Shown here piece after piece: positions 193 to 5,160 of a stretch of DNA of 5,160 nucleotides (positions are counted from its first letter, which is position 1; each line of letters begins with the position of its first letter). The notes below the pieces were generated by a model, which saw only the letters and a list, made by a program, of their open reading frames with translations, ran no database searches and was not told where the DNA came from. The stretch lies in the NCBI GenBank assembly GCA_913061425.1, contig CAJXUO010000125.1, positions 1-5,160 on the forward strand. Direction: 5' to 3'. A program made the position numbers and the translations under genes. This stretch comes from an uncultured Lutibacter sp. Its GTDB lineage: Bacteria > Bacteroidota > Bacteroidia > Flavobacteriales > Flavobacteriaceae.

Positions 193-231
193 TATTTTAC
201 GATTAATAGTTCATTGATATGTGTTCTTGAC

Positions 232-246
232 GCACTTTCCAAGTGC
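232..246. repeat. Short dyad GCACTT-TCC-AAGTGC in the divergent intergenic region
   Basis: Two perfect 6-bp arms, GCACTT and AAGTGC, flank a 3-bp spacer. The dyad lies between the umuD and bioF starts. Its right arm abuts CAAAGATG (246-253), whose complement CATCTTTG is one base from the Bacteroidota -7 element TAnnTTTG and would face umuD. No good -33 TTG was found for that candidate, so the promoter is weak. The dyad could be an operator at the umuD start site. An arm of six bases can also arise by chance. Confidence 0.35.
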
Positions 247-257
247 AAAGATGTTAG

Positions 258-285
258 TAAAGGTAATGAAATTTCATTACCTTTA
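258..285. promoter_or_regulatory. Perfect 28-bp palindrome, candidate operator
   Basis: Each half reads TAAAGGTAATGAAA on its own strand, giving a 28-bp palindrome with no mismatch and no spacer. It ends 37 bp before the bioF ATG, just upstream of the expected -33 region of the bioF promoter, and would lie across the upstream half of a umuD promoter facing left. A terminator is unlikely because the genes on both sides point away from it and no U-run follows. It does not resemble the BirA box (TTGTAAAC half-sites separated by about 14-16 bp). The perfect symmetry suggests a dimeric DNA-binding protein, which could control bioF, umuD or both. The regulator is unknown. Confidence 0.55.
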
Positions 286-310
286 TGTGAATGTTAAATC
301 AACGATTCTC

Positions 311-318
311 TATATTTG
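311..318 (+). promoter_or_regulatory. Candidate -7 promoter element for the biotin operon (TATATTTG)
   Basis: TATATTTG matches the Bacteroidota consensus TAnnTTTG exactly. The -33 TTG is not perfect: GTG (287-289) or ATG (291-293) stands at the right distance. Transcription would begin about 4-8 bases after the element, on or beside the bioF ATG at 323, which implies a leaderless or nearly leaderless mRNA. Confidence 0.5.
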
Positions 319-322
319 TTTT

Positions 323-1477
323 ATGAAGGGACTCCCAAGTAAATTAATTAAAAAACTAAGAGCAAGGAAAGAACAAAATTCTTTACGGCAACTTTCTTTA
401 CAAAGTGATTTAGTAGACTTTTCATCCAATGATTATTTAGGGTTTTCAAAATCCAAAGAAACATTTCAAAAGGCTCATCAATACTTAGTTGAAAATAATT
501 TAGAACAAAACGGTGCAACAGGTTCAAGATTGTTAAGTGGAAATCATAAACTATATGATGATGTAGAAAGGCTATTGTGTAAGTTTCACAATTCGGAATC
601 TGTAACAATTTTTAATTCAGGTTATGACGCCAATATTGGCCTTTTCTCTTCTGTTCCACAACGAGGAGACATTATTTTATATGACGAATTCATTCATGCC
701 TCTATTCGTGATGGAATTAGACTTTCAAATGCGAAAGCATATAGTTTTAAGCATAATAATTTAGAAGACTTAAATGAAAAAGTTCTGCGCATGTCTCAGA
801 AAGGCAGTAGTATTTATGTTGTCACTGAATCAGTGTTTTCTATGGATGGTGATTCTCCAGATTTAGTTGCAATGTCTCAAATATTAAACACACACAATTC
901 ATATTTAATTGTTGACGAAGCTCATGCTATTGGAGTTTTTGGAATGAATGGTTGTGGACTCATTCAAGAATTGGACTTAGAAAATGATGTGTTTGCTAGA
1001 ATTGTAACTTTTGGTAAGGCTTTAGGTTGCCATGGCTCAGCGATTATTGGCACCAAAGAATTGAAAGAATATTTAGTAAATTTTGCTAGAAGTTTAATAT
1101 ATACAACTGCACTTCCACCACATTCTATTGCAACAATAAAAGTTGCTTATGAGCAGCTTGCTATTCAAAATGATAGTGAAGACTCTGAGATAAAAAAATT
1201 GTATCGAAACATTCAGTATTTTAAATCCGAATTGATGCGACACAAGATTCAGCAGAAGTTTGTAGAAAGTAACTCTTCAATTCAATGTTGTATTGTTTCA
1301 GGAAATGAAAAGGTAAAAAAAGAAGCAACTTTAATAAGAGAAAAAGGGTTTGATGTAAAGCCAATTTTATCACCTACAGTTTCTAAAGGTCAAGAACGTT
1401 TGCGTTTTTGTATACATAGTTATAATTCGAAGAAAGAAATAGAGGAAGTTCTAAAACTACTCGCTACCTTTGTTTAA
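323..1477 (+). CDS. bioF: 8-amino-7-oxononanoate (KAPA) synthase BioF
   Basis: This cytosolic PLP enzyme of the alpha-oxoamine synthase family condenses pimeloyl-ACP or pimeloyl-CoA with L-alanine, releasing CO2, to make KAPA, the first committed step of late biotin synthesis. The 384 residues equal the usual length. Visible motifs in order are SSNDYLG near the N-terminus, GATGSRLLSG from G64, FNSGYDAN, the acidic/His stretch YDEFIHAS, TESVFSMDGD, DEAHA (D198 contacts the PLP ring nitrogen, H201 stacks nearby) and TFGKALG, where K232 should form the Schiff base. The frame stays open upstream to a GTG at 221. The ATG at 323 is chosen because MKGLPSKLIKKLRARK resembles known BioF N-termini, while the upstream codons run through the palindrome and the promoter. 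It heads the operon, and the next gene starts 10 bp after its stop. Related KBL or serine palmitoyltransferase activity is possible by fold, but the neighbours settle the call. Confidence 0.95.
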   Translation: MKGLPSKLIKKLRARKEQNSLRQLSLQSDLVDFSSNDYLGFSKSKETFQKAHQYLVENNLEQNGATGSRLLSGNHKLYDDVERLLCKFHNSESVTIFNSGYDANIGLFSSVPQRGDIILYDEFIHASIRDGIRLSNAKAYSFKHNNLEDLNEKVLRMSQKGSSIYVVTESVFSMDGDSPDLVAMSQILNTHNSYLIVDEAHAIGVFGMNGCGLIQELDLENDVFARIVTFGKALGCHGSAIIGTKELKEYLVNFARSLIYTTALPPHSIATIKVAYEQLAIQNDSEDSEIKKLYRNIQYFKSELMRHKIQQKFVESNSSIQCCIVSGNEKVKKEATLIREKGFDVKPILSPTVSKGQERLRFCIHSYNSKKEIEEVLKLLATFV

Positions 1478-1487
1478 ATTAAACTTT

Positions 1488-1859
1488 ATGAGTGCATATA
1501 CAGTTTTAGCCGTTTTCGAATATTCTACAGAAGCACACTTGATTAAATCAAAATTAGATTCTGAAAACATTAGAACTTTATTGACGGATGAAAATACTGA
1601 ATATCATAGTGTAATTAGTTATACAGTTGGAGGTGTTAAATTGAAAGTTCATAATGAAGATTTAGATAAGGCACTTAAAATATATAATGAAATTAGAGTT
1701 TATAAAACAAAAGAAAATGACGAATCAATTCATTGTCCAAAATGTAATTCAACTCGAATTTTAACTGCTCCAGCAAGAAGAAAAAACTTATTTTATATGT
1801 TGTTTTCTTTTTTAGAAGAATCAAAAGATATATGTAACGATTGCAAAATAATTTTTTAA
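1488..1859 (+). CDS. DUF2007 domain protein with C-terminal zinc-ribbon-like cysteines
   Basis: This is a 123-residue protein without signal peptide or clear membrane segment. Residues about 1-70 look like a DUF2007 (putative signal-transducing protein) domain: an opening strand (YTVLAVFEYS), the helix EAHLIKSKLDSENI, the phrase LLTDENT, and then GGVKLKVHNEDLDKALKIY. The C-terminal part has two cysteine pairs, C83-P-K-C86 and C116-N-D-C119, separated by a basic and hydrophobic stretch, consistent with a small zinc ribbon. The ATG at 1488 is preferred over the in-frame TTG at 1470, which overlaps the bioF stop region. It lies 10 bp after bioF and 2 bp before bioD, so it is very likely co-transcribed with the biotin genes. 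No biochemical role is established for this domain that I can name. A regulatory or protein-binding role in the pathway is only an inference from position. The domain call is moderately sure. Confidence 0.8.
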   Translation: MSAYTVLAVFEYSTEAHLIKSKLDSENIRTLLTDENTEYHSVISYTVGGVKLKVHNEDLDKALKIYNEIRVYKTKENDESIHCPKCNSTRILTAPARRKNLFYMLFSFLEESKDICNDCKIIF

Positions 1860-1861
1860 GT

Positions 1862-2470
1862 ATGAAAAAATATTTTGTAACAGGAATTTCTACCGAAGTT
1901 GGTAAAACAGTTGCATCTGCAATACTAGTTGAAGCGCTTCAAGCCGATTATTGGAAACCTATACAAGCAGGAGAATTGGAGAATTGCGACACTCAAAAAG
2001 TTAAAAGGTTGGTGTCAAATAACAACTCTAAATTTCATCTAAATTCATATGCCTTGAAAACTCCAATGAGTCCACATGCTGCTGCTGAAATTGATGTTAT
2101 TCAAATTGATTTAAAGAACATAAAGGAGCCAAAGACAAAAAATAATTTAGTTATAGAAGGTGCTGGAGGTTTATTGGTTCCGTTAAATACTTCTGAAACA
2201 ATTTTAGATATTATAAAGCCAGAATATAAAGTGATTGTGGTTTCTCGTCATTATTTAGGAAGTATCAATCATACATTATTGACGATAAAACTATTACAAG
2301 AAAAGGGATTTGAAGTTGCGCTTATTTTTAGTGGAAATGAGAATAAGACAACAGAAGGTATTATTAAAAAAATGACAAATATCGATGTGATTGGAAGAAT
2401 TGAAGAAGAACCTTACTTTGATAAAAATGTTATAAAAGAATATGCGGATTTGTTCCGAGACAAGTTATGA
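1862..2470 (+). CDS. bioD: Dethiobiotin synthetase BioD
   Basis: BioD is an ATP-dependent cytosolic carboxylase that turns DAPA and CO2 into dethiobiotin by closing the ureido ring. The 202-residue protein is a little shorter than the E. coli enzyme (about 225) but has the full motif set: the P-loop G8-ISTEVGK-T16 with K15 (E. coli has GTDTEVGKT), WKPIQAG with K32 at the position of the substrate-binding lysine, the YALKTPMSPHAAA segment typical of the family, and EGAGGLLVPL starting at E99, which holds the metal/ATP-binding glutamate and glycine loop. The ATG at 1862 puts MKKYFVTGISTEVGKT in the expected register; an in-frame TTG at 1841 would overlap the previous gene. Its TGA stop shares an ATGA with the bioA start, indicating translational coupling between two enzymes that act in succession. 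Confidence 0.95.
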   Translation: MKKYFVTGISTEVGKTVASAILVEALQADYWKPIQAGELENCDTQKVKRLVSNNNSKFHLNSYALKTPMSPHAAAEIDVIQIDLKNIKEPKTKNNLVIEGAGGLLVPLNTSETILDIIKPEYKVIVVSRHYLGSINHTLLTIKLLQEKGFEVALIFSGNENKTTEGIIKKMTNIDVIGRIEEEPYFDKNVIKEYADLFRDKL

Positions 2471-3732
2471 GTTTACAAGAAAGAGATAAAAAACACCTTT
2501 GGCATCCATTAAAGCAACATCAGTTAAATCCAGAAAGTTTAGCGATTGTAAAAGCGAAAGATTGTATTCTAACAGATGAAAATGGGAATGAATATATAGA
2601 TGCTATCGCATCATGGTACACATGTATGTATGGTCATTGTAATGAATTCATTACGAGTCGTGTTTACAAGCAAATGCAGCAATTGGATCAAGTGATGTTT
2701 AGTGACTTCACGCACGAGCCTGCAGTGAAACTTTCTGAAGAACTTATTAAAATACTTCCAGCAGGTCAGAACAAAATTTTCTTTAATGATAATGGTTCTA
2801 CAGCCGTTGAGGCAAGTATTAAAATGGCATTGCAATACTATTATAATAAAGGAGAAAAGCGTTCTGTTTTTATTGCTTTTGAAAACGGATTTCATGGTGA
2901 TACATTTGGTGCAATGGGAGTTTCCGGATTATCAGTTTATAATGGTCCATTTGAAGATTTTTTAATTGATGTTAAACGGATTCCAACTCCAGACGGAACG
3001 AATCAAGAAGAAATTATAAATCTATTAGAGGGTTACGTTTCTAATAATAAAATCGCAGGGTTTATCTACGAACCTTTGTTACAAGGAGCAGCAGGAATGA
3101 AAATTCATGATGCCGCGGGATTGAATGAAATTTTAAAATTTTGTAAGAATCAAAAAGTTTTGACTATTGCAGATGAAGTAATGACGGGTTTTGGTAAAAC
3201 TGGAAAGAATTTTGCGTCTGAATTTATGGACACGAAGCCTGATATTATATGCCTGAGTAAGGCATTAACTGCAGGATTACTTCCTATGGCAATTACATCT
3301 TGTACTCAAGAAATTTACGATGCCTTTTTAAGTGATGATATATCTAAAGGTTTTTTTCATTGCCATACGTATTCTGCTAATCCTGTTGCTTGTGCCGCCG
3401 CAATTGCAGGAATTGAGTTATTGAAATCAGTAGAAATCCAAAAAAACATCAAAGAGATTATTGCTTCTCATAAAAGATTTAATGAGCGCATAAAAAATCA
3501 TCCAAAAGTAAAATCAACGAGACAATTAGGAGTTGTTTTTGCGATAGATTTAAATACAAATAATGAACGCTATGGAGGTTTGCGAGATAAGCTTTTGAAG
3601 TTTTTTATGGATCGTGGTGTTTTCTTAAGACCTTTAGGAAATACAATTTACATTCAAGTTCCTTATATAATTACAAAAAAAGAGTTAGAAAAAGTCTATA
3701 AAACTATTGAAGAGTCGCTATCTATAGTTTAA
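2467..3732 (+). CDS. bioA: Adenosylmethionine-8-amino-7-oxononanoate aminotransferase BioA
   Basis: This class III (fold type I) PLP aminotransferase converts KAPA to DAPA. In the classical enzyme SAM donates the amino group; some relatives (BioK) use lysine. The 421 residues match the usual 420-430. Landmarks are HLWHP at the N-terminus, W50 in ASWYTC, the NDNGSTAVEASIKMALQYY segment, NGFHGDTFGAMGVSG (residues 140-154), D236-E-V in ADEVMTGFGKTG (PLP ring contact), K265 in LSKALTAG (Schiff base) and R388 in LRPLGNTIYI, equivalent to the carboxylate-binding R391 of E. coli. Compared by eye with E. coli BioA, Y17 appears as L15, W53 as Y51 and Y144 as F142, so the substrate pocket is altered. 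The gene overlaps bioD by four bases. Its own TAA stop overlaps a possible promoter element for the next gene. The aminotransferase class is certain, and BioA rather than BioK is the better but not proven choice. Confidence 0.93.
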   Translation: MSLQERDKKHLWHPLKQHQLNPESLAIVKAKDCILTDENGNEYIDAIASWYTCMYGHCNEFITSRVYKQMQQLDQVMFSDFTHEPAVKLSEELIKILPAGQNKIFFNDNGSTAVEASIKMALQYYYNKGEKRSVFIAFENGFHGDTFGAMGVSGLSVYNGPFEDFLIDVKRIPTPDGTNQEEIINLLEGYVSNNKIAGFIYEPLLQGAAGMKIHDAAGLNEILKFCKNQKVLTIADEVMTGFGKTGKNFASEFMDTKPDIICLSKALTAGLLPMAITSCTQEIYDAFLSDDISKGFFHCHTYSANPVACAAAIAGIELLKSVEIQKNIKEIIASHKRFNERIKNHPKVKSTRQLGVVFAIDLNTNNERYGGLRDKLLKFFMDRGVFLRPLGNTIYIQVPYIITKKELEKVYKTIEESLSIV

Positions 3733-3756: not shown

Positions 3757-4953
3757 ATGCAAAACCCTATTTCAATAACATCTATTGCTTCAATTTCTTC
3801 TTTAGGAAGTAATATGGATGCTATTTGGGAAAATTATTGTAATCCAAATCACAATTTTCAACGTAAAGACTTTGATAATTTCACGTCGCTTATTGCTCCT
3901 TTAGGTTCCAATGAAGAAGAAGAGATTGAAAAATTAAGGTTGTCAAACAATCGTTATAAAAGCCTTGATAGATCTGTTTTGATGGCAATATATGCTTCTC
4001 GAAAAGCAGTAAAAGCAGCTAATTGGAAAGATGGAGATTATGGAATAAATATTGGTTCTTCTCGAGGAGCAACATCACTTTTTGAGAAGTTTCACGAAGA
4101 TTTTTTAGAAAGAAATAAAACACAAACATTAACTTCTCCGACTACAACTTTGGGAAATATTTCTTCTTGGATTGCACATGATTTACAATCTCAAGGACCT
4201 ACAATAAGTCATTCGATTACTTGTTCTACAGCATTACATGCACTTTTAAATGGTGTTGCTTGGATCAATGCTGGAATGATCGAAAAATTTTTAGTTGGAG
4301 GGAGTGAAGCTCCGTTGACAGCATTTACGATTGCGCAGATGAAAGCGATGAAAATTTATGCTTCGACTCCGCTCAGCAACCCAAATATTGAAAGGTCACT
4401 GAGCGGAGTCGAAGTGTACCCTTGCCGTACTTTAGATTTTGACAAAAAAAAGAATACAATGATTTTAGGCGAAGGAGCCTCTATTATGTGTTTGGAGAAA
4501 GAGGAAACGAAAGATGCATTAGCAATAATTGAAGGTATAGGGTATGCTACAGAAATATTGGAACATAATATTTCTATTTCCGATGATGCTCAATGTTTTC
4601 AAAAATCAATGCAAATGGCATTAAAAAACACAGATGTTTCAGAAGTTGATGTGATTGTGATGCACGCTCCAGGAACCTTAAAAGGAGATAGTTCAGAATA
4701 TAAAGCAATTCAAGAAGTCTTTGGGAATTCCATTCCTTCATTGACGTCAAATAAATGGAAAATTGGACATACGTTTGGTGCTTCAGGTGCTTTGAGTATT
4801 GAATTAGCAATTTTAATGATATTGCATCAAAAATTTATTGATATTCCCTTTTTAGAAAATCAAAAACAACCCAAACAAATTAAAAAAGTATTGGTAAATG
4901 CTGTTGGATTTGGTGGGAATGCCGTGAGCATCTTACTTTCAAATCAAAATTAG
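3757..4953 (+). CDS. FabF/FabB-type beta-ketoacyl synthase in the biotin operon
   Basis: This is a 398-residue condensing enzyme of the thiolase fold. It keeps the Cys-His-His triad of elongating ketosynthases: C156 in SITCSTALHALL, H303 in VMHAPGTLKGD (family form HxTxTxxGD) and H338 in NKWKIGHTFGASG, with K333 at the conserved lysine of the STKSxxGH motif. The C-terminal glycine loop VGFGGNAVSILL is present. The family joins malonyl-ACP to an acyl chain with loss of CO2. The N-terminus (ITSIASISSLGSN) is less canonical than the usual TGxGxxSPxG. Codons 202-219 come from an inserted inverted repeat in the loop before the YPCRTLDF and GEGAS segments, and the frame survives. The gene lies 24 bp after bioA and 71 bp before bioB, so a role in building the pimeloyl chain or a related biotin step is inferred. 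It is not FabH/BioZ-like, since KAS III uses Cys-His-Asn. General fatty acid or pigment synthesis is the alternative. Confidence 0.9.
   Translation: MQNPISITSIASISSLGSNMDAIWENYCNPNHNFQRKDFDNFTSLIAPLGSNEEEEIEKLRLSNNRYKSLDRSVLMAIYASRKAVKAANWKDGDYGINIGSSRGATSLFEKFHEDFLERNKTQTLTSPTTTLGNISSWIAHDLQSQGPTISHSITCSTALHALLNGVAWINAGMIEKFLVGGSEAPLTAFTIAQMKAMKIYASTPLSNPNIERSLSGVEVYPCRTLDFDKKKNTMILGEGASIMCLEKEETKDALAIIEGIGYATEILEHNISISDDAQCFQKSMQMALKNTDVSEVDVIVMHAPGTLKGDSSEYKAIQEVFGNSIPSLTSNKWKIGHTFGASGALSIELAILMILHQKFIDIPFLENQKQPKQIKKVLVNAVGFGGNAVSILLSNQN
4361..4414. repeat. REP-like inverted-repeat element inside the ketosynthase gene
   Basis: The outer arms CTTCGACTCCGCTCAG (4361-4376) and CTGAGCGGAGTCGAAG (4399-4414) pair perfectly over 16 bp. 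The pairing resumes further in, giving 19 of 21 matches between 4361-4381 and 4394-4414 around a 12-base loop. The arms are GC-rich (10 of 16) in very AT-rich surroundings. The element is 54 bases, a multiple of three, and adds about 18 codons in frame with no stop. From memory, sequences close to CACTGAGCGGAGTCGAAG are common dispersed palindromes in Bacteroidota genomes, usually between genes. No clear target duplication is visible at its ends. Confidence 0.85.
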
Positions 4954-5024: not shown

Positions 5025-5160
5025 ATGAGCGTAGTAAAACACGATTGGACACGAGAAGAAATATTGGAAGTTTATAACAAGCCTATGATGGAGTTGTTAT
5101 ATGAAGCTGCAACTGTTCATCGTGAAAATCACGATCCAAATTTAGTACAAGTATCTACAT
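5025..5160 (+). CDS. bioB: Biotin synthase BioB, N-terminal part, cut by the window edge
   Basis: The 45 visible codons read MSVVKHDWTREEILEVYNKP, then MMELLYEAATVHRENHD, then PNLVQVST. This aligns with the start of E. coli BioB (WT...[38 protein letters not shown]). The window ends just before the radical-SAM CxxxCxxC cluster motif, so catalytic residues cannot be checked. BioB is a radical-SAM iron-sulfur enzyme that inserts sulfur into dethiobiotin to give biotin, the last step of the pathway. The ATG at 5025 is preceded by an A/T-rich leader with no Shine-Dalgarno, and the same ACTTTATGAG context is seen at the DUF2007 gene. It follows the ketosynthase by 71 bp on the same strand, so the final enzyme closes the set of late biotin genes. 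The identity is firm despite the short fragment. Confidence 0.93.
   Translation, partial: MSVVKHDWTREEILEVYNKPMMELLYEAATVHRENHDPNLVQVST

What the first reader, a model, noticed from the sequence alone, without database searches (positions are those of the whole stretch)
3757..4953. Dedicated FabF/FabB-type ketosynthase between bioA and bioB, with no known pimeloyl gene nearby
The sequence shows an intact Cys156-His303-His338 elongating ketosynthase within a complete late biotin operon. Known routes to the pimeloyl thioester use BioC with BioH/BioG-type esterases, BioI, BioW, or the KAS III enzyme BioZ; none of these is in the window. This protein belongs to a different ketosynthase class from BioZ. 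It may extend a C3 or C5 dicarboxylyl or masked acyl-ACP toward pimeloyl-ACP, which would be an uncharacterised branch of biotin synthesis. The function is inferred from position only.
Basis: partly seen in the sequence, partly recalled or inferred. Interest (0 to 1): 0.75.

Follow-up and report, generated by a model that had tools for sequence, protein, structure and literature searches.

The report
Arginine-pocket ketosynthase for biotin's pimeloyl chain
In the flavobacteria sampled here, a ketosynthase gene found among the biotin genes occurs only in genomes that also hold bioA, and those genomes showed none of the three known pimeloyl-making enzymes searched for (BioC, BioE, BioW); the enzyme has an invariant arginine in its predicted acyl pocket and likely builds biotin's seven-carbon chain without the usual methyl masking.

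Summary
In detail: 3757-4953 encodes an intact FabF-class ketosynthase (C156, H303, H338) between bioA and bioB. In 120 genomes of the same family (119 genera), its orthologue is in 67 of 69 genomes with bioA and in 0 of 51 without; the two exceptions carry BioC-BioG, or a bioA cut by a contig end. BioC passes its cut-off in 1 of 120, BioE matches in 0 of 120, BioW in 0 of 120. Four genomes keep bioB without bioA and lack the ketosynthase, so it goes with the early pathway. Elsewhere in the class it ends five-gene bioB-F-D-A-KAS operons (4 loci) or adjoins bioF (5 loci). It forms a group apart from FabF. Residue 103, aligned with the FabF pocket gate Ile108, is arginine in all 99 rows checked (91 distinct) and in none of 34 other ketosynthases. 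Most likely this arginine holds the free carboxylate of a dicarboxylyl primer, so malonyl extension gives pimeloyl-ACP without BioC/BioH, as BioZ does from another ketosynthase class. Substrate and phenotype are untested. It does not explain most bioB-bearing genomes of the class (at least 87 of 113 unassigned). A 54-base palindrome is inserted in frame in this copy.

The parts
3757..4953 (+). biotin-linked FabF-class ketosynthase (398 aa)
4063..4065 (+). codon of Arg103, aligned with FabF Ile108 (acyl-pocket gate)
   Evidence: aligns with the residue that differs between 4ls5 (wild type) and 4ls6 (I108F mutant); R in 99 of 99 rows
4222..4224 (+). codon of catalytic Cys156
   Evidence: 99 of 99 rows
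4663..4665 (+). codon of catalytic His303 (motif HAPGT instead of FabF HGTST)
   Evidence: 99 of 99 rows
4768..4770 (+). codon of catalytic His338
   Evidence: 99 of 99 rows
4361..4414 (.). 54-base palindromic element inserted in frame in the ketosynthase gene (21-base arms, 12-base loop)
   Evidence: net 12 extra residues against the 94% identical P0001, absent from P0001-P0018; pLDDT under 50 at residues 207-218
2467..3732 (+). bioA
   Evidence: TIGR00508 over cut-off
1841..2470 (+). bioD
   Evidence: TIGR00347 over cut-off
221..1477 (+). bioF (GTG at 221 as listed; the ATG at 323 is a likelier start)
   Evidence: best model TIGR00858, 332.8 bits, under its cut-off of 426.45
1470..1859 (+). 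DUF2007 protein gene within the operon
   Evidence: PF09413; in 21 of 49 named loci
5026..5160 (+). start of bioB, cut by the contig end
   Evidence: continuation G000:C7:1-855

Best explanation
The gene encodes a FabF-class ketosynthase that is predicted to make the pimeloyl chain of biotin: it would take an acyl primer with a free carboxylate, held by Arg103 in the acyl pocket, and condense it with malonyl-ACP, so that BioC methylation and BioH/BioG de-esterification would not be needed. Shown: intact Cys-His-His active site, operon position, presence only with bioA in the family sample, no BioC over cut-off, BioE or BioW in those genomes, arginine at the FabF Ile108 position throughout the group. 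Inferred: that Arg103 points into the pocket and binds the carboxylate; that the 3-oxo product is reduced by the ordinary fatty-acid enzymes to pimeloyl-ACP for BioF; that the last condensation is glutaryl (C5) to 3-oxopimeloyl (C7). Open: whether the C5 primer comes from outside or is made by the same enzyme from malonyl (C3).
For: Co-occurrence in 120 genomes of one family: KAS in 67, bioA in 69, all 67 with bioA; the KAS lies within 1.5 kb of bioA in 59 of 67. Four genomes with bioB but no bioA (G061, G089, G093, G115) lack it. BioC over cut-off 1 of 120; BioE 0 of 120, the same query matching 6 of 198 class genomes; BioW 0 of 120 with Bacillus subtilis positive. G113, same genus, one contig, 99% complete, has KAS, bioA and bioB and none of the three. 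Where BioE or BioC-BioG occurs, the KAS is absent from the locus: 6 of 6 BioE loci and 3 of 3 BioC loci, and the genome sets do not overlap (and the lists). Five-gene operons bioB-F-D-A-KAS in L110, L111, L121, L122; KAS beside bioF in L186, L187, L188, L191 and L112 (bioF the best model there, though under its cut-off). Arg103: 99 of 99 rows, 91 distinct sequences; 120 of 120, 45 of 46 (one fragment lacks the region) and 34 of 34 database relatives; 0 of 34 other KAS of these genomes. Group of its own. For BioZ, Hu and Cronan suggested an arginine for the free carboxylate (PMC7645780, passages), and S84, R147, S287 were put forward for that in PMC8024396 (passages).
Against: No experiment. 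In BioZ the arginine itself was not essential (R147A kept partial activity). Hu and Cronan cite the hydrophobic active sites of fatty-acid enzymes as the argument against a free-carboxyl route; if it applies to the reductases and dehydratase too, Arg103 in the KAS alone would not suffice. A BioH-like esterase, or a methyltransferase that scores under the strict BioC cut-off (reached by only E. coli of the 14 controls), cannot be excluded; BioE was sought with one sequence. In 8 of 67 genomes the KAS is not within 1.5 kb of bioA, and one of nine class loci outside the family, L115, has no bio gene in the 17 kb read. At class level at least 87 of 113 bioB-bearing genomes had none of KAS, BioE or BioC at the thresholds used. 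An Oligoflexales protein, P0162, has the arginine but groups on the other side on a long branch.
Confidence: 0.6

Rival explanations
1. The KAS is a dedicated elongation enzyme for a methyl-masked malonyl-ACP, as FabB/FabF are in E. coli; a methyltransferase unlike BioC and an unrecognised esterase sit elsewhere in the genome.
For: Generic methyltransferases match the BioC model weakly in all 120 genomes, and BioH-type hydrolases cannot be told from other hydrolases by family search.
Against: An invariant charged residue in the predicted pocket fits a masked, uncharged chain poorly; the compact operons L110, L111, L121, L122 hold no gene besides bioB, F, D, A and KAS; where BioC-BioG occurs (L123, L124, L139) no such KAS is in the locus.
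Confidence: 0.18
2. The enzyme does only the last condensation, glutaryl to 3-oxopimeloyl, on a glutaryl thioester that comes from lysine breakdown, as BioZ does in alpha-proteobacteria (a variant of the best explanation).
For: BioZ precedent with glutaryl-CoA or -ACP (PMC7645780, PMC8024396, passages).
Against: No glutaryl-supplying gene was recognised among the conserved neighbours scanned; a FabF-class enzyme is expected to take ACP-bound, not CoA-bound, primers (family knowledge). The supply genes were not searched genome-wide.
Confidence: 0.3
3. The KAS feeds long-chain acyl-ACP to an unidentified chain-cleaving oxygenase of the BioE or BioI kind.
For: BioE makes pimeloyl-ACP from C14-C18 acyl-ACP and its authors report it in Flavobacteriaceae (PMC12915131, sections and passages).
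Against: BioE 0 of 120 in this family and disjoint from the KAS in the class sample; arginine where a long alkyl chain would pass; each of the 67 KAS genomes has at least one further ketosynthase match. BioI was not searched.
Confidence: 0.05
4. The KAS serves another lipid pathway and lies in the biotin operon by descent only.
For: In 8 of 67 genomes it is not within 1.5 kb of bioA; in L115 no bio gene is near it.
Against: Present in 0 of 51 genomes without bioA, although 50 of these 51 have some other ketosynthase match; linkage to bioF or bioB in other families of the class.
Confidence: 0.05

Closest known systems
BioZ (KAS III type, alpha-proteobacteria)
   Same: A ketosynthase in a biotin gene cluster in place of BioC-BioH; free-carboxyl primer; arginine among the residues proposed to neutralise it (PMC7645780, PMC8024396, passages).
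   Different: BioZ is of the FabH class with Cys-His-Asn; this protein is of the FabF class with Cys-His-His, so the two arose separately.
FabF / FabB (KAS II / I)
   Different: 20-26% identity; Ile108 replaced by Arg, HGTST by HAPGT, Gly-Phe of the F202 gate by Gln-Met; presence tied to bioA; separate group in the tree.
BioC with BioH or BioG
   Same: Same proposed product, pimeloyl-ACP, through fatty-acid enzymes.
   Different: Needs methylation and an esterase; found over the cut-off here only in G003 (family sample), G151 and G226 (class sample), with BioG and without this KAS in the locus.
BioE (with BioL)
   Same: Another early-step replacement in Bacteroidota biotin operons.
   Different: Diiron oxygenase that cleaves long acyl chains; matched in 6 of 198 class genomes, none with the KAS.

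Membership tests
FabF-class ketosynthase superfamily (PF00109/PF02801) | Both domains over the curated cut-off | tested here: met
   59.0 and 62.1 bits, cut-off 20.8 each
FabF-class ketosynthase superfamily (PF00109/PF02801) | Cys-His-His active site | tested here: met
   C156, H303, H338 in 99 of 99 rows
Housekeeping FabF (TIGR03150 equivalog) | Score over the equivalog cut-off | tested here: not met
   144.9 of 493.75 bits; the genome has a separate FabF-like gene, L001
Housekeeping FabF (TIGR03150 equivalog) | Present whether or not biotin is made | tested here: not met
   0 of 51 genomes without bioA
BioZ | KAS III class with Cys-His-Asn triad | tested here: not met
   KAS III model PRK09352 18.7 bits against 249; second histidine H338 present
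[quoted passage not shown]
   needs an assay
BioC-BioH/BioG route | BioC over cut-off in the genome | tested here: not met
   1 of 120 family genomes, G003, which lacks the KAS; own genome best 63.8 of 184.95 bits; next best in the family 88.1
BioC-BioH/BioG route | BioH-type esterase | not tested
   cannot be told from other hydrolases by family search
BioE route | BioE homologue in the genome | tested here: not met
   0 of 120; same query positive in 6 of 198. The BioE used (L127) has the six ligands of EmBioE at the published positions
BioW route | BioW (PF03744) in the genome | tested here: not met
   0 of 120; Bacillus subtilis and Methanocaldococcus jannaschii positive
BioI route | BioI P450 in the genome | not tested
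   no search made
BioZ elsewhere in the same genomes | A second, KAS III type BioZ gene | not tested
   no specific search made

The most novel reading that the evidence does not exclude
This is the three-malonate route to pimelate that was proposed and set aside because free carboxyl groups should not be tolerated: the arginine-gated ketosynthase would load malonyl-ACP, extend it to glutaryl-ACP and again to pimeloyl-ACP, so that one gene replaces BioC and BioH and biotin's pimeloyl part is made from malonyl-ACP alone with ordinary reductases.
Probability: 0.3. Interest if true: 0.92.

Novelty: new variant of a known kind. Interest (0 to 1): 0.78.

Why it matters
How these flavobacteria make the pimeloyl part of biotin has no answer among the routes tested here. 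A one-gene, methylation-free route would show that the free-carboxyl problem, for which E. coli needs BioC and BioH, can be solved inside the ketosynthase pocket, and it would be a second, independent origin of a biotin ketosynthase after BioZ. It turns an old question into one complementation test and one point mutant, gives a marker for calling biotin prototrophy in genomes that lack BioC, and offers a compact part for biotin or dicarboxylate production.

Tried and rejected
Ordinary FabF with chance linkage: rejected by co-occurrence and tree. BioE as the hidden enzyme: not found in this family; the paper's statement that BioE occurs in Flavobacteriaceae is not reproduced in my sample (one family, 119 genera, one query sequence), perhaps a matter of taxonomy. 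A pimeloyl gene among conserved neighbours: around 49 named loci the recurrent clusters that I scanned or recognised were BioB, RecX, an SPFH/Band 7 protein, an ATP-grasp protein, a Y-family polymerase, a cupin and ATP synthase subunits; one 210-aa cluster had no Pfam match, and not every small cluster was scanned. Single-sequence class search at E 1e-25: gave weak scores for the f29 members and for one f44 genome, and missed the other f44 members; the alignment search and motif check brought them out. Genes next to bioB: eight were scanned, but only three (L128, L129, L153) are from genomes without KAS, BioE and BioC; none looked pimeloyl-like, and the unassigned 231-aa one in L153 lacks a second ExxH motif. 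Fisher p of 4e-27 for KAS against bioB is not corrected for shared ancestry, so I rest on the counts.

Limits: the tree is a short search with SH-aLRT only; the branch between the two sides has 92, the group of 34 other KAS 100. The 99 rows are 91 distinct sequences. The 120-genome set is called Flavobacteriaceae, and the class Bacteroidia, by inference from named relatives. Novelty rests on ten library searches, nine of them on biotin, of open-licence papers only; subscription papers were not seen. PMC9909488 (passages) lists bioC and fabF for Balneolaceae and says nothing of a biotin-linked ketosynthase in those passages.

Full report
The observation. The window carries bioF, a DUF2007 gene, bioD, bioA, a 398-aa ketosynthase at 3757-4953 and the first 45 codons of bioB. 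The contig ends inside bioB; the rest starts contig C7 of the same genome. The genome is a fragmented assembly, 78% complete, 381 contigs; its only other strong ketosynthase-domain match is a FabF-like gene on C49 (198 bits, L001), besides three weak ones of 22-26 bits. Named relatives of the protein are from Urechidicola and other Flavobacteriaceae.

Association with biotin synthesis. I searched the same 120 genomes (119 genera of one family) with the ketosynthase, BioC, BioB, BioE, BioA and BioW. Ketosynthase scores fall into two groups, about 259 bits and more or 106 and less; 67 of 120 have the high-scoring orthologue. BioB is over its cut-off in 73; BioA matches at E 1e-100 in 69, 68 of them over the cut-off. 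All 67 ketosynthase genomes have BioA and BioB; the ketosynthase occurs in none of the 51 genomes without BioA. The two BioA genomes without it are G003, which has a bioB-bioA-bioF-bioG-bioC-bioD operon (L139), and G079, where BioA is cut off at a contig end in an 81% complete assembly. Four genomes have BioB but neither BioA nor the ketosynthase. In L134, L137 and L138, read over about 10 kb to each side, and in the short L136, BioB stands beside a MocR-type regulator and a gene of 605-623 aa, a TonB-dependent receptor in the copy scanned (L136), with no bioF, bioD or bioA in the DNA held. This ties the ketosynthase to steps before dethiobiotin, not to BioB. In 59 of 67 genomes it lies within 1.5 kb of bioA; the other eight are farther off or on another contig.

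Known routes. BioC passes its cut-off in 1 of 120 genomes, G003; the next best is 88.1 of 184.95 bits, and of the 14 control genomes only E. coli passes. A fourth published route, BioE, cleaves long acyl-ACP or acyl-CoA (PMC12915131; I read its introduction, sections 2.1 and 2.3, one methods section and passages). I found a BioE in L127, divergent from a MocR gene and upstream of bioF-D-B-A; all six diiron ligands of EmBioE sit at the published positions. With it as query, BioE matches in 6 of 198 genomes of the class and in 0 of 120 of the family. BioW: 0 of 120, with Bacillus subtilis positive. BioI, BioH and a KAS III BioZ were not searched for. G113, same genus and one contig, 99% complete, has the ketosynthase, BioA and BioB, and no BioC over the cut-off (63.2 bits), BioE or BioW.

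Beyond the family. A profile of 31 diverse members (A1) finds 13 of 198 class genomes at 355 bits or more, all 13 with BioB. Nine of the 13 are outside the family. Their loci read: bioB-bioF-bioD-bioA-KAS and nothing else in L110, L111, L121, L122; bioF-KAS in L112; bioA-KAS in L119; KAS after bioF and bioD with a reverse-strand ORF between in L114; bioF about 4 kb off on the other strand in L117; no bio gene within 17 kb in L115. Four more genomes of one family (f44) have diverged members at 182-188 bits that share the arginine and the HAPGT motif and lie directly upstream of bioF in all four loci; a fifth f44 genome, G235, at 159 bits, was not inspected. The 6 BioE and 2 BioC genomes of the class sample are disjoint from these 17. 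Against a general explanation: of 113 BioB-bearing class genomes only 25 (26 with G235) are accounted for, so at least 87 carry none of the three at these thresholds. BioA was not counted at class level, so I cannot say how many of these make biotin from the start.

Tree. In a tree of 84 ketosynthases the 31 biotin-linked rows, the four f44 rows and nine arginine-bearing database proteins fall on one side; the 34 other ketosynthases form one side of a branch with support 100. The dividing branch has 92, and one arginine-bearing protein from an Oligoflexales assembly (P0162) falls on the other side on a long branch.

Mechanism. Hu and Cronan describe a proposal in which three malonates condense twice to give pimeloyl-ACP, argued against because free carboxyl groups should not be tolerated in the hydrophobic active sites, and they suggest a pocket arginine for BioZ (PMC7645780, passages). 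BioZ residues S84, R147 and S287 were later put forward as neutralising the glutaryl carboxylate; S84A and S287A failed while R147A kept partial activity (PMC8024396, passages). The protein described here has an arginine at the gate of the acyl pocket in a different ketosynthase class. I conclude that it most likely condenses a dicarboxylyl thioester with a free carboxylate with malonyl-ACP and so yields pimeloyl-ACP after reduction by the common enzymes. Whether it starts from glutaryl or already from malonyl is open.

Novelty. Ten searches of the open-licence library, nine on biotin and one on the FabF pocket, listed no paper that by title or abstract start treats a FabF-class ketosynthase of the biotin operon; from the listed papers I read five in part. 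Public names for the protein are generic. I file it as a new variant of a known kind: a ketosynthase solution to the pimeloyl problem, of another class than BioZ.

The insert. Bases 4361-4414 are a palindrome (21-base arms, 90% complementary, 12-base loop); its 16-base arm core occurs twice in the window against 0.01 expected. The 18 closest relatives (82-94% identical) lack it; this copy has 12 net extra residues against P0001 at a loop of variable length, modelled with pLDDT under 50. The reading frame stays open, so the gene is probably still active.

Noticed in passing
window 4361-4414: A 54-base palindromic element sits in frame inside the ketosynthase gene and is absent from the 18 closest relatives; the site is a loop of variable length in the family. 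One arm of the same element lies inside the bioF reading frame of another bacterium (L060:2258-2273).
   Followed up: partly
L134, L136, L137, L138: Four flavobacterial genomes keep bioB without bioA; there bioB follows a gene of 605-623 aa (a TonB-dependent receptor in L136) and a MocR-type, BioL-like regulator gene: possibly a dethiobiotin uptake and conversion locus.
   Followed up: partly
window 1470-1859: A DUF2007 protein with two C-terminal CxxC motifs overlaps bioF and bioD and has relatives in 21 of 49 named loci; its role is unknown.
   Followed up: no
L067:8061-9150: In Flavobacterium davisii the ketosynthase gene is in two frames (broken near codon 306), and bioF, bioD and bioA are not within the DNA held around it, of which 1,468 bases are masked.
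   Followed up: partly
L187, L188, L191: In three of four f44 loci a DAHP synthase gene lies directly upstream of the ketosynthase-bioF pair.
   Followed up: no
L114:8745-10319: One class member (G307) has a proline-histidine-rich low-complexity stretch in the N-terminal part of the ketosynthase.
   Followed up: no
class sample: At least 87 of 113 bioB-bearing genomes of the class sample have neither this ketosynthase nor BioE nor BioC at the thresholds used; further early-step enzymes, or bioB-only salvage, may be common.
   Followed up: no
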